A stretch of 64,000 bases of DNA from a bacterium (GTDB taxonomy: Bacteria > Acidobacteriota > Thermoanaerobaculia > Multivoradales > JAHEKO01). Below are positions 45,154-64,000 of this stretch, in pieces. The stretch's first letter is position 1. Each line of letters begins with the position of its first letter. Position numbers and translations under genes: made by a program. The notes under the pieces are model-generated. The model was given only the letters and a program-made list of their open reading frames with translations, was not told where the DNA came from and searched no databases. Where the stretch lies: contig JAAENP010000149.1 of assembly GCA_024224155.1 (NCBI GenBank), forward strand, positions 1 through 64,000. Reading direction: 5' to 3'.

Positions 45154-45480
45154 ATGTCTCGAAGCTCAAGATCCACAGCGGCATTGTTCGGCGTCATGGC
45201 GATCGCGCTTGGTGCGCAGGTGCGAGGCGCCGAGATCCTTACACTCCTGGAGGCCATGGCTCGGGTGCGAGCCGGTGCTCACGAAGTCCAGGCGGCAGCC
45301 GCGCGTGTTCTGGCCGGCGATGCGCAGCTGCGCGAAGCACGTTCATACCGAAAGCCGCGGGTTCATCTTCAGGAGATCTGGACGCGGACGGACTCACCGG
45401 CCGAGGCGCTGGATCGACCAAGTCGTGGTCAACTGACAATCACCAACCTTCCCGCTCGCCGATTGTCGCTAGCGCGCTGA
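45154..45480 (+). pseudogene. Truncated TolC-family outer-membrane protein remnant
   Basis: A 108-residue frame with a signal peptide (ALFGVMAIALGAQVRGAE) and the start of a TolC-type coiled coil (LTLLEAMARVRAGAHEVQAAAARVLAGDAQLREARS, then KPRVHLQEIWTRTDSPAEAL). True TolC-family proteins have about 400-480 residues, so at least three quarters are missing, and no continuation is seen in the other forward frames. The last 20 residues are unrelated. It is probably the relic of a deletion. Confidence 0.6.
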
Positions 45481-45753
45481 CTTGCCATCTGAATCAGCTG
45501 GTTCTTGGCTCAACCGTTCGCAGTACTCGGTAAGGTCCATCATCAGGTCGCCGAACTTCTCGGGCGCACAAAAGAGCCGCAGACCCACCATTGCTTCGGC
45601 CACCACCTCCGGGAGATTCTCAGAGGTGAGGGTCCGGCCGGAGTCCCCGGAACGCTCGAGAGCCGTGCCAACCGCTGCCCGGACCGAAGCGTCGCTCAGG
45701 TACGGTTGCGTCACGGCAAAGAGGTCCTTCCAAAGGGCTTCGGACGCCGTCAT
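45469..45753 (-). CDS. Small protein of unknown function at the end of the sHdr operon
   Basis: A 94-residue acidic helical protein (LTSENLPEVVAEAMVGLRLFCAPEKFGDLM, one conserved-looking Cys pair C-A-P and Y-C-E). I recognise no family. It is 9 bp downstream of the third radical SAM gene in the same direction and overlaps the TolC remnant by 12 bp, so it is probably the last gene of the long operon. Confidence 0.55.
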   Translation of the reverse strand: MTASEALWKDLFAVTQPYLSDASVRAAVGTALERSGDSGRTLTSENLPEVVAEAMVGLRLFCAPEKFGDLMMDLTEYCERLSQEPADSDGKSAR

Positions 45754-45762
45754 TTCAACACT

Positions 45763-46917
45763 CTAAGCTAGAACGCTGTCAGGCCGACCGGCTGCTGGCG
45801 GTGCACAGAGCTCGGGCGGTCGCGCAGGTCCCGGGCCGGGTCGAAGAATCGACTCGAGATCAAGTTCTTTGCGGATAGGTGTTCGGTCGATGTCTGCCGG
45901 TTGCCAGGGATAGTCGCGCGGAGCCTCTCCCGGACGCCAACTTCCCATCGGGCGAGTGCAGCCGGGTTCGCCGCCGGATCCGGGGCAGCCGTTGGTCATG
46001 AAGGCGAAGCCCTCTTCGATCGCGGCGTCGACAAGCCCCGCCGGGGTATGGATTGCTTCGAGCATGCCTTGACCGTCGAATCTGAAGGCCCGAGGATCGA
46101 GGCCACGCTCCTCGAGTAGGAACTTCGCGAGCTGAATTCGGCGCCAGCGGCGCACTGGGCTCTTGACGTGATCCGCCATCCTCGAGTCCGGCTCGGGGTT
46201 GAAGCAGAAGAGATACGAGAAGATCTGGCGATCGAGGAGGCGTTCGAAGATCTCCATGAGATCCCGGTCGCTTTCGCCGAGGCCGACAAGTGTGTGGCAG
46301 TTGACCTTCCAGGGGCCGTAAATGTCACGAGCGGCAAACACGATGTCCCAGTAGTTGTCCCAGTCCAGGCTCCCCTTCGGAACATCGCTTCGAATCGACC
46401 GAAACAGCTCTTCGGTGACCGCGTCCATGCCAATACCGATCATGTCGGCGCCGGCTCCTTTCAGATCGTGAAGTCGCTCGCGGTTGAGAGTGGGTGGCGC
46501 CACCAGGATGGAAAGTGGCGTTTCGAGCCGAGAACGAATGCGCTTGGTGATATCGAGAGTGTCCCGATAGGCGTGACCGTGGGTCACCATTGAAATGCAC
46601 AGCCGAGTCAGCCGGTCTCGATATCTCGCCATGCGATCGACCAACTCGTCGGTCTCGACCAGTGGCCACTTCACGCGGATGAACGACTTGTCTTCGTAGG
46701 CTCCACTGCGTGATCTGGCGAGACCACAGTAGCCGCAATCCGACTGGCACCCTTGCGGGTAGTTCAAAAGCAAGTTGATACCTCCGAAGTCGAAGGCGCG
46801 CATGAACTGGCCGGACTTGAATCGCAGAGCCAGGGCGCTGGCGTAGCTGATTCGGACGTGGTCCGGACTCGTTCGCTGCTCAGGCCGAGAGGCTTCGCCG
46901 ATCTCAACCAGCGTCAT
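45763..46917 (-). CDS. Radical SAM protein, BioB/LipS-like
   Basis: A 384-residue radical SAM enzyme with the cluster motif CQSDCGYC (Cys57, 61, 64) after FDFGGINLLLNYPQG. The core, with LVGLGESDRDLMEIFERLLD and MIGIGMDAV, resembles biotin-synthase-like enzymes. Known sHdr loci carry LipS1 and LipS2, two radical SAM proteins that together insert sulfur into octanoyl-LbpA. This is a good candidate for one of them. A C-terminal region has extra cysteines (NGCPGSGGEPGC) that could bind a second cluster. The start overlaps the ligase gene by 14 bp. Confidence 0.82.
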   Translation of the reverse strand: MTLVEIGEASRPEQRTSPDHVRISYASALALRFKSGQFMRAFDFGGINLLLNYPQGCQSDCGYCGLARSRSGAYEDKSFIRVKWPLVETDELVDRMARYRDRLTRLCISMVTHGHAYRDTLDITKRIRSRLETPLSILVAPPTLNRERLHDLKGAGADMIGIGMDAVTEELFRSIRSDVPKGSLDWDNYWDIVFAARDIYGPWKVNCHTLVGLGESDRDLMEIFERLLDRQIFSYLFCFNPEPDSRMADHVKSPVRRWRRIQLAKFLLEERGLDPRAFRFDGQGMLEAIHTPAGLVDAAIEEGFAFMTNGCPGSGGEPGCTRPMGSWRPGEAPRDYPWQPADIDRTPIRKELDLESILRPGPGPARPPELCAPPAAGRPDSVLA

Positions 46918-63297: not shown

Positions 63298-63305
63298 CCC
63301 GGCTC

Positions 63306-63824
63306 CTAGATGAAGAGTGTGATGTCGGCGTCGGCGGCGAACTCGAGAAAAGTGGCTGCGCCACCGAGTTCGGTGCCTTCTATGAAGTCTTCCTGCGCGA
63401 AGCCGAAGACATCCATGGTCATCTGACAGCCGATCAGTCGAACGTCCGACTCGACGCAGGCCTCACGCAACTCCTCGATGGTGGCAACACCCTTCTTCTT
63501 GAAGGTCTTTTTCATCATCGAGGTGGCGAAACTCTCGAAACCGGGAACGACGCCGGAAATGACGTTCGGAATCGGCCAGGAGAAGCTCTGGAAGCCCTCG
63601 GAGCCGAACGGCATTTTCATCGGCATTGCCGGATTCGAGTGCGGCGCGACCTTGGCCTTGAGGTCCTTCATCAGGAGGGGCAGCCCGTAGAAAGTGAAAA
63701 ACACGGCGACCTCCATGTCGAGCGCGGCCCCGGTCGAAGCCAGGATGAATGGCGGGTAGGCCCAGTCCAGAGTCCCTTTGGACGCGATCAGGGCCATGCG
63801 TTTGGTTCCCCCGTTGTCGCTCAT
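63306..63824 (-). CDS. dsrE2: DsrE2-like sulfur transfer protein
   Basis: A 172-residue DsrE2-type protein with IASKGTLDWAYPPF and GCQMTMDVF, Cys133 being the conserved sulfur-binding residue. Cys123 (EACVESD) is also present. Compared with the paralog at 38099, the first Cys is Ala. It pairs with the truncated tusA upstream; tusA-dsrE2-dsrE3 is a common set feeding sHdr. RBS GGAGG lies 6 bp before the ATG. Confidence 0.86.
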   Translation of the reverse strand: MSDNGGTKRMALIASKGTLDWAYPPFILASTGAALDMEVAVFFTFYGLPLLMKDLKAKVAPHSNPAMPMKMPFGSEGFQSFSWPIPNVISGVVPGFESFATSMMKKTFKKKGVATIEELREACVESDVRLIGCQMTMDVFGFAQEDFIEGTELGGAATFLEFAADADITLFI

Positions 63825-63842
63825 CGTTGCCTCCTTGTTTGT

Positions 63843-64000
63843 TTACTTGGAGCGGCGAATCCAGAAGGTGTACTCGCCGTCACCTTCGGCCTGCTGCACG
63901 GTCTCGTGTCCGGTTCGGCGGCTGAAGGCCGCTACGTCGGGAATCGACCCGGGATCGGTGGAGACCATCTTGAGGACCTGGCCCAACTCGATGCTGCCGA
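63843..64000 (-). CDS. tusA: TusA-family sulfur carrier, C-terminal part (cut by window end)
   Basis: The last 51 codons read on the minus strand end in TFWIRRSK and share TDPGSIPDVAAF...RTGHE with TusA at 43790 (TDPGVLADIPAW...ATGHE). The CPxP Cys is outside the window. It starts the sHdr-linked operon as visible here, 18 bp before dsrE2. Confidence 0.85.
   Translation of the reverse strand, partial: GSIELGQVLKMVSTDPGSIPDVAAFSRRTGHETVQQAEGDGEYTFWIRRSK

What the first reader, a model, noticed from the sequence alone, without database searches (positions are those of the whole stretch)
45469..64000. A complete sHdr-LbpA sulfur-oxidation locus with its own lipoate assembly and an ETF/quinone module
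Nineteen consecutive minus-strand genes encode shdrC1-B1-A-hyp-C2B2, lbpA, tusA, dsrE2, dsrE3-like, three lipoate-ligase-like proteins, three radical SAM proteins, a regulator, etfBA and a membrane Fe-S protein. Spacing is mostly a few bases or 4-bp overlaps. The sHdr-LbpA pathway and its sLpl(AB)/LipS1/LipS2 assembly are established. The embedded etfBA and ETF:quinone oxidoreductase are not part of the standard set, so electrons could leave through the quinone pool. The host appears to be outside the usual sHdr Proteobacteria.
Basis: partly seen in the sequence, partly recalled or inferred. Interest (0 to 1): 0.85.

Follow-up and report, generated by a model that had tools for sequence, protein, structure and literature searches.

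The report
Type II sHdr sulfur-oxidation operon, Acidobacteriota
A bacterium of the Acidobacteriota carries a complete set of sulfur-oxidising genes of an already described kind, whose built-in flavoprotein and membrane partner probably feed the electrons into the respiratory chain.

Summary
21 co-directional minus-strand genes (45469-63824), plus a TusA gene cut by the window edge, encode sHdrC1-B1-A-H-B3, EtfBA, a membrane ETF oxidoreductase (EMO/EtfD type), two lipoyl proteins, sulfur carriers and LipS1/LipS2/sLpl(AB). The central novelty claim fails: sHdr with EtfBA in one cluster is published as the 'type II' sHdr system ('group III' earlier), and Sulfobacillus 'hdr cluster II' already shows etfAB beside a membrane CCG protein. 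In 40 loci found with sHdrH, all 35 that extend at least 2.4 kb past sHdrB3 have EtfB and EtfA, and 32 of 33 extending 3.6 kb have the EMO after them. The host is inferred to be a Thermoanaerobaculia member (Acidobacteriota); 4 of 148 genomes of its class hold sHdrH. Two features may be new. sHdrB3 is collinear with, and 37% identical to, the cytosolic half of the EMO, so EtfBA may shuttle between paralogous docking partners. The second 'LbpA', in the lipoate-assembly block, keeps the lipoyl lysine but lacks both LbpA cysteines (17 of 17 rows), while the first type has both (42 of 42). Verdict: new member of a known kind.

The parts
45469..45753 (-). hypothetical protein, 94 aa, last gene of the run
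   Evidence: ORF, no Pfam family; membership by position only
45763..46917 (-). LipS2-type radical SAM lipoyl synthase half
   Evidence: NF053743 LipS2 best match, 181.6 bits, below its cut-off of 270; Radical_SAM over cut-off
46904..48103 (-). sLpl(AB) lipoate:protein ligase, aligned catalytic Lys kept
   Evidence: LplA-B_cat and a sub-threshold Lip_prot_lig_C; start corrected; Lys in 14 of 14 sLpl rows
48100..49251 (-). third radical SAM protein, role unknown
   Evidence: Radical_SAM below cut-off, 25.9 bits; 54-66% identical homologues in L009, L010, L034, L036, L044; L010 and L036 are one contig
49254..50261 (-). LipS1 radical SAM lipoyl synthase half
   Evidence: NF053742 LipS1, 235.4 bits, over cut-off 230
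50258..50776 (-). second lipoyl (GcvH-like) protein, LbpAb; lipoyl Lys kept, no signature Cys; start uncertain
   Evidence: GCV_H; Lys and Cys counts
50736..51764 (-). LplA-like protein LplAb; aligned catalytic Lys is Arg
   Evidence: LplA-B_cat; alignment
51761..52246 (-). MarR-like regulator
   Evidence: MarR_2 24.6 bits, just below cut-off 27; homologues after the EMO in some other type II loci
52311..54356 (-). EMO/EtfD-type membrane ETF oxidoreductase: 5 long N-terminal helices in the model, two 4Fe-4S motifs, one CCG domain
   Evidence: Pfam, best PDB match M. smegmatis EtfD 9ojn by sequence and fold, model (a hydropathy scan passes only 4 of the helices), invariant Cys/His
54370..55338 (-). 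EtfA
   Evidence: ETF and ETF_alpha; PDB 1o94_D 200 bits
55335..56078 (-). EtfB
   Evidence: ETF; PDB 1o94_C 109 bits
56177..57499 (-). sHdrB3 (fused C2B2); collinear with the cytosolic half of the EMO
   Evidence: Fer4 plus CCG; hhalign to EMO probability 100, 360 columns, 37% identity
57496..58275 (-). sHdrH, the conserved 'hyp' of sHdr clusters, all-helical in the model
   Evidence: no family; 40 relatives, each beside other sHdr genes; model
58297..59367 (-). sHdrA, FAD/Fe-S protein
   Evidence: 6tjr 292 bits against 201 for methanogen HdrA; start
59367..60575 (-). sHdrB1, CCG-type presumed catalytic subunit
   Evidence: CCG; 53% to Acidithiobacillus plasmid protein; conserved Cys
60585..61307 (-). 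sHdrC1, two 4Fe-4S motifs
   Evidence: Fer4_8; 8 of 8 cluster Cys invariant in 36 rows
61333..61635 (-). thioredoxin-like protein (CSGC)
   Evidence: weak TIGR02187, 23.6 bits; homologues at the same place in many relatives
61681..62136 (-). LbpA (LbpAa) with lipoyl Lys and both signature cysteines
   Evidence: GCV_H
62149..62523 (-).
   Evidence: DsrE
62533..63297 (-). short, degenerate LplA-like protein LplAa
   Evidence: LplA-B_cat partial; no aligned catalytic Lys
63306..63824 (-). DsrE2
   Evidence: NF047629 219.8 bits, over cut-off 210
63843..64000 (-). C-terminal part of TusA; gene runs to contig position 64154
   Evidence: L005:3843-4154, PRK00299 TusA 50.7 bits, below its cut-off of 78

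Best explanation
The locus is a type II sHdr-LbpA system for oxidising sulfane sulfur to sulfite in the cytoplasm. Incoming sulfur is passed by TusA, DsrE2 and the DsrE-like protein to LbpA, whose lipoyl arm presents it to sHdrB1 in the sHdrC1-B1-A-H-B3 complex. Electrons run through sHdrA/C1 to sHdrB3, then to EtfBA, then to the EMO/EtfD-type membrane protein and so to the quinone pool. LipS1, LipS2 and sLpl(AB) make the lipoyl group. Shown here: gene content, conservation of motifs, co-occurrence of EtfBA and EMO with type II sHdr, correlated divergence, homology of sHdrB3 to EMO and of EMO to EtfD. Inferred from published work on other organisms: the sulfur chemistry and lipoylation. Inferred only: the electron path within the complex, EtfBA as the electron acceptor of sHdrB3, and quinone as the sink.
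For: Core genes by family. sHdrH search of GTDB contigs: 40 loci, each with further sHdr genes; EtfB and EtfA in 35 of 35 loci with at least 2.4 kb after sHdrB3 (5 of 40 end earlier), EMO in 32 of 33 with at least 3.6 kb; the exception, L036, is the same contig as L010, where an EMO-like gene (29% identical) lies beyond the lipoate genes. Pairwise identities of the core and of EtfBA-EMO correlate at 0.77, best of 999 permutations 0.24, 31 rows. EMO matches M. smegmatis EtfD over nearly the full length, a protein that in M. tuberculosis serves EtfBA (PMC8593149, passages). The genome has a second EtfAB and a second EMO elsewhere, so this set looks dedicated. Type II is defined in print by shdrC1B1AHB3 plus etfAB in one cluster.
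Against: I found no biochemistry for this organism or clade. Neither EtfBA docking on sHdrB3 nor quinone reduction was tested. No SoxB and no AprA were found in the genome, so the source of sulfane sulfur and the fate of sulfite are unknown; the genome is a 576-contig assembly of 96.6% estimated completeness. The permutation test does not keep phylogeny, so vertical co-inheritance alone would also give the correlation. Several of the 40 loci are near-duplicates, and the search was seeded with type II proteins. LipS2, TusA, MarR and the third radical SAM protein match their families below cut-off.
Confidence: 0.8

Rival explanations
1. The EtfBA is an electron-bifurcating (or confurcating) type that couples sHdr oxidation to both quinone and a low-potential acceptor.
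For: HdrABC relatives bifurcate in methanogens and some Etf groups do too (recalled). EtfA scores higher against CarE and LctC (154 and 153.5 bits, recalled as bifurcating) than against the mitochondrial Etf (137).
Against: Both subunits match the Etf of entry 1o94 best (109 bits for EtfB against 61 or less, 200 bits for EtfA against 154 or less, for entries recalled as bifurcating); that 1o94 is non-bifurcating is recalled. None of the family matches in the cluster is a ferredoxin- or NAD-reducing enzyme, though sHdrA carries a Pyr_redox_2 domain.
Confidence: 0.12
2. EtfBA-EMO serve an unrelated dehydrogenase (such as acyl-CoA dehydrogenase) and merely sit in the operon.
For: EtfD of mycobacteria serves acyl-CoA dehydrogenases (PMC8593149).
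Against: Presence in 35 of 35 (EtfBA) and 32 of 33 (EMO) evaluable loci, correlated divergence, and a second EtfAB and EMO elsewhere in the genome for such duties.
Confidence: 0.05
3. The system runs in reverse, or acts on thiol/disulfide pools during persistence rather than as a sulfur-oxidising energy pathway, as proposed for Thermomicrobium roseum.
For: PMC6776052 (passages) found its sHdr-etfAB cluster up on average 45-fold in persistence and suggested thiol oxidation. No SoxB or AprA in this genome.
Against: TusA, DsrE2, a DsrE protein and Cys-bearing LbpA are the delivery set found with sHdr in sulfur oxidisers (PMC6067878; here).
Confidence: 0.15

Closest known systems
Type II sHdr-LbpA system (PMC11582611; 'group III' of PMC6067878)
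   Same: shdrC1B1AHB3 and etfAB in one cluster; group III has two or three lipoyl proteins; own lipoate assembly
   Different: Host is Acidobacteriota, where group III was reported from Actinobacteria and Firmicutes (the phyla of type II in PMC11582611 were in a figure I could not see); extra radical SAM gene; LplAa and LplAb lack the aligned catalytic Lys; MarR-like gene after the EMO
Sulfobacillus hdr gene cluster II (PMC4378227)
   Same: sHdr with etfAB and an adjacent membrane protein with CCG domain
   Different: That protein is described with 6 helices and 2 CCG domains; here the model shows 5 long N-terminal helices and Pfam finds one CCG domain
Thermomicrobium roseum 19-gene cluster trd_0160-0142 (PMC6776052)
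   Same: hdrABC, etfAB, tusA, two dsrE, three lbpA; ETF proposed to carry electrons to the respiratory chain
   Different: Sequence not compared here; the passages seen name no membrane ETF oxidoreductase
Mycobacterial EtfD (PDB 9ojn; PMC8593149)
   Same: Nearly full-length fold and sequence match of the EMO
   Different: Serves acyl-CoA dehydrogenases, not sHdr; longer protein (1042 aa chain)
Type I sHdr of Hyphomicrobium
   Same: sHdrA homologous over most of its length (identity of 6tjr recalled)
   Different: Type I has separate C2 and B2 and no etfAB in its definition

Membership tests
Type II sHdr-LbpA system | shdrC1, B1, A, H and fused B3 in one syntenic cluster | tested here: met
   order C1-B1-A-H-B3 at 56177-61307
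Type II sHdr-LbpA system | etfAB in the same cluster | tested here: met
   54370-56078
sHdr-LbpA system | LbpA with strictly conserved lipoyl Lys and two Cys that GcvH lacks | tested here: met
   LbpAa 61681-62136
sHdr-LbpA system | same features in the second lipoyl protein 50258-50776 | tested here: not met
   Lys kept, both Cys absent; not filed as a catalytic LbpA
sLpl(AB)-LipS1/LipS2 lipoate assembly | LipS1, LipS2 and an Lpl(AB) ligase together | tested here: met
   LipS1 over its cut-off, LipS2 best match but below its cut-off, Lip_prot_lig_C below its cut-off
sHdr sulfur oxidation | cluster-dependent oxidation of thiosulfate or sulfane sulfur | not testable with these tools
   needs culture or heterologous expression
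EMO/EtfD family | membrane helices, two 4Fe-4S motifs and CCG domain; homology to EtfD | tested here: met
EMO/EtfD family | accepts electrons from EtfBA and reduces quinone | not testable with these tools
   no assay
Methanogen/acetogen-type HdrABC | closer to methanogen HdrA/HdrB than to sHdr | tested here: not met
   HdrA 292 bits to 6tjr against 201; HdrB1 424 bits to an Acidithiobacillus protein, 58 to methanogen HdrB; acetogen sequences not compared

The most novel reading that the evidence does not exclude
sHdrB3 is in effect a soluble EtfD: a paralogue of the EMO's cytosolic half that docks EtfBA, so that the flavoprotein shuttles between two homologous sites, one on the sulfur enzyme and one in the membrane. 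In the same operon the cysteine-free lipoyl protein LbpAb would be a lipoyl relay on which sLpl(AB), LipS1 and LipS2 build lipoate before the Lys-less LplAb moves it to the working LbpA, as LipM-GcvH-LipL do in Bacillus.
Probability: 0.35. Interest if true: 0.6.

Novelty: new member of a known kind. Interest (0 to 1): 0.4.

Why it matters
In the passages I read, no one demonstrates how electrons leave the cytoplasmic sHdr complex. The near-constant EtfBA-EMO partner and the sHdrB3-EMO homology make a concrete, testable route for type II systems. The host extends the pathway to Thermoanaerobaculia (Acidobacteriota). Two paper searches named this phylum with sHdr; by the counts listed, one paper of theirs holds both words, PMC12345210, and its passages assign 334 of 406 sHdr to Proteobacteria and give no phylum for the other 72. 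Supplements and closed-access surveys could not be read, so absence from print is not claimed.

Tried and rejected
TusA inside the window: the small gene beside LbpA is thioredoxin-like, the 94-aa gene at the low end has no Pfam family; TusA is at the window edge.

Methanogen Hdr: rejected on scores.

Type I sHdrC2/B2 for a tree with sHdrB3 and EMO: not obtained. Plasmid hits were a lone HdrB1-like gene in Acidithiobacillus and a distant cyanobacterial cluster, a viral-contig scan gave no relative, and 28 of the 40 loci's genomes, searched with HdrB1, held no second copy apart from two split genes and one weak match (12 of the 40 loci were not given to that call). So which of sHdrB3 and EMO is ancestral stays open. 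In the tree made sHdrB3 (43 rows) and EMO (33 rows, among them the genome's second EMO on a very long branch) fall on two sides of one branch.

sHdrH fold: Foldseek found nothing in the PDB at E 0.001 or better. A second look ranked four 8-oxoguanine DNA glycosylases first at Z 6.8-7.8 (rmsd 4.2-4.9, 163-177 residues), next row 4.8. The tool's own note calls Z under 8 unsafe, more so for helical proteins, and only 1 of 36 members touched HhH-GPD in Pfam, at E 0.26; NCBIfam gave only scattered weak matches. Kept as a lead only.

sHdrR: the divergent ArsR-type protein has no Cys in the region where Cys50 of sHdrR/SoxR is expected (one search read against by eye, no alignment made), so it is not claimed as a sulfane-sulfur sensor.

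LbpAa/LbpAb labels come from best match to the window's two proteins; the cysteine counts are an independent trait, the clade test partly is not. A first count used rows trimmed at the match start, with gaps at the N-terminal position in three rows; repeated with up to 40 more residues, the counts stood.

Other paper searches gave nothing that changed the reading. PMC4782131 (passages) mentions an ETF of unknown role and an hdr gene with sat and apr in SAR324 genomes.
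Full report
What is there. By my choice of frames, 21 genes between 45469 and 63824 run on the minus strand, with TusA as a 22nd cut by the window edge; of the 21 junctions, 19 are gaps under 50 bases or overlaps (starts). In the direction of transcription they are TusA, DsrE2, a short LplA-like protein, a DsrE-family protein, LbpA, a thioredoxin-like protein, sHdrC1, sHdrB1, sHdrA, sHdrH, sHdrB3, EtfB, EtfA, a 681-aa membrane Fe-S protein, a MarR-like regulator, a second LplA-like protein, a second lipoyl protein, LipS1, a third radical SAM protein, sLpl(AB), LipS2 and a small hypothetical protein. 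The two larger gaps are 98 bases between sHdrB3 and EtfB and 64 between the EMO and the MarR-like gene. Genes that read by eye as a divergent ArsR regulator and a FadL-like porin lie just beyond the window.

Host. The window is part of a 5.7-Mb, 576-contig assembly. Its nearest relative in the search, 88% identical in sHdrH, is a contig titled Thermoanaerobaculia bacterium, Acidobacteriota (L012); a contig of the same length, with sHdrH, belongs to a genome of the window's own genus (G354). So the host is inferred to be a member of the Thermoanaerobaculia. The cluster marker sHdrH is rare there: 4 of 148 genomes of the class, 3 of 297 genomes sampled from the phylum, the window's own genome counted in both.

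Is it sHdr? sHdrA scores 292 bits against PDB 6tjr (the Hyphomicrobium sHdrA, recalled) and 201 bits against the best methanogen HdrA. HdrB1 is 53% identical over 91% of its length to an Acidithiobacillus plasmid protein. The cluster cysteines are conserved: all eight in HdrC1 (36 rows), and the eight of the two CCG-type motifs in HdrB1 at 97-100% of 39 rows.

Is EtfBA-EMO unusual? No. I scanned the GTDB contig collection with an sHdrH alignment; 190 stretches matched one of two short patterns and 40 were confirmed as relatives (a pattern scan is not exhaustive). Their titles name Acidobacteriota, Neomarinimicrobiota, SAR324, Deltaproteobacteria, Bacteroidetes/Bacteroidota, KSB1, Actinomycetota, Rokubacteria, Gemmatimonadetes, Chloroflexi and unnamed bacteria. 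Five of 40 loci end less than 1.3 kb after sHdrB3. The other 35 of 35 have EtfB and EtfA; of the 33 with at least 3.6 kb, 32 have an EMO after EtfA; the exception (L036) is the contig of L010, where an EMO-like gene, 29% identical, lies beyond the lipoate genes. In four loci the lipoate genes stand between sHdrB3 and EtfB (L034, L037, L039, L044). Some loci are near-duplicates (for example L025/L026, L020/L051), so the independent number is smaller. The search was seeded from type II sHdrH proteins, so it says nothing on type I systems.

What print already says. PMC11582611 (passages) classifies type II by shdrC1B1AHB3 plus etfAB in one cluster. PMC6067878 (sections) describes hdr-like genes, two or three lipoyl proteins and EtfBA as group III in Actinobacteria and Firmicutes. 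PMC4378227 (part of a section) reports etfAB beside a membrane CCG protein in Sulfobacillus hdr cluster II. PMC6776052 (passages) reports an etfAB-sHdr cluster in T. roseum and proposes electron exit possibly by ETF. Two papers that PMC11582611 cites for the types (Kuempel 2024, Tanabe 2024) were not held.

How it most likely works. TusA, DsrE2 and the DsrE-like protein pass sulfane sulfur to LbpA; the sHdr complex oxidises it to sulfite; this is taken from published work on other organisms. For the electrons I propose sHdrB3 to EtfBA to EMO to quinone. sHdrB3 aligns with the cytosolic half of the EMO over 360 columns at 37% identity, hhalign probability 100, and its best PDB match is M. smegmatis EtfD (194 bits), above methanogen HdrC (53) and HdrB (22). 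The EMO profile matches the same EtfD nearly end to end (451.9 bits; TM 0.83 by query). The EMO model (pLDDT 86.9) has five long N-terminal helices, of which a hydropathy scan passed four; His72, His240 and the 12 cysteines of two 4Fe-4S motifs and one CCG motif are invariant in 31-32 rows. In M. tuberculosis EtfD is the oxidoreductase partner of EtfBA (PMC8593149, passages). EtfBA is closest in the PDB to the Etf of 1o94. Core and EtfBA-EMO identities correlate at 0.77. The genome has one more EtfAB and one more EMO outside this locus.

Lipoate block. sLpl(AB) keeps the aligned catalytic lysine in 14 of 14 rows; that this Lys is catalytic is recalled from E. coli LplA. LplAb has Arg there in all 5 Acidobacteriota rows (the window included) and Lys in 16 of the other 17 (one row is a gap); the 4 LplAa rows have no Lys. 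LplAb also has a Cys (window residue 62) in 20 of 22 rows (91%). The lipoyl proteins split in two. All 42 LbpAa-type rows have the lipoyl Lys, the N-terminal Cys and a Cys within the last 30 residues; all 17 LbpAb rows have the Lys, an aromatic residue (Tyr or Phe) in place of the N-terminal Cys, and no Cys in the last 30 residues. PMC6067878 calls the two cysteines strictly conserved in LbpA except some archaeal ones. In 16 of 17 rows, the window included, LbpAb lies directly beside LipS1 or sLpl(AB); the stretch held of L032 ends soon after it. A relay role is my inference.

Against. Sequence alone shows none of the electron steps. The genome has no SoxB or AprA match and one PF00174 protein; other sulfur enzymes were not searched, so sulfur source and sulfite fate are open. 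No type I C2/B2 sequences were available, so the origin of the sHdrB3-EMO pair is open. EtfA also scores well against Etfs recalled as bifurcating.

Verdict. A well-formed member of the published type II sHdr-LbpA kind in a host for which I found no report in the papers that could be searched, with two features worth following: the sHdrB3-EMO pair and the cysteine-free LbpAb.

Noticed in passing
window 50258-50776: The second lipoyl protein lacks both LbpA cysteines but keeps the lipoyl lysine; 17 of 17 such rows have Tyr or Phe at the N-terminal Cys position and 16 of 17 sit beside LipS1 or sLpl(AB).
   Followed up: partly
window 50736-51764 and 62533-63297: Two LplA-like proteins that have lost the aligned catalytic lysine; for the first, Arg in 5 of 5 Acidobacteriota rows and Lys in 16 of the other 17.
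   Followed up: partly
window 48100-49251: Third radical SAM protein, absent from the stretch held of the nearest relative L012 but present in L009, L010/L036, L034 and L044.
   Followed up: partly
window 57496-58275: sHdrH has no family; its model is all-helical and its best structural rows are 8-oxoguanine DNA glycosylases at Z under 8, which may be only a shared helix arrangement.
   Followed up: partly
L029, L031, L049 upstream of the cluster: A second HdrA-like pair and a second HdrB3-like gene (51-52% identical to the window's) precede the type II cluster.
   Followed up: no
L010:9153-10661: A protein that reads by eye as a cysteine desulfurase (NifS-type) lies between sHdrB3 and EtfB in the G095/L036 locus.
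   Followed up: no
window 39145-40392: Rhodanese plus metallo-beta-lactamase fusion, possibly a persulfide dioxygenase relative, 5 kb from the run.
   Followed up: no
L011 (G000:C99:55001-74107), 10720-13980: A 1087-aa open frame with two HdrA-like stretches elsewhere in the same genome.
   Followed up: no
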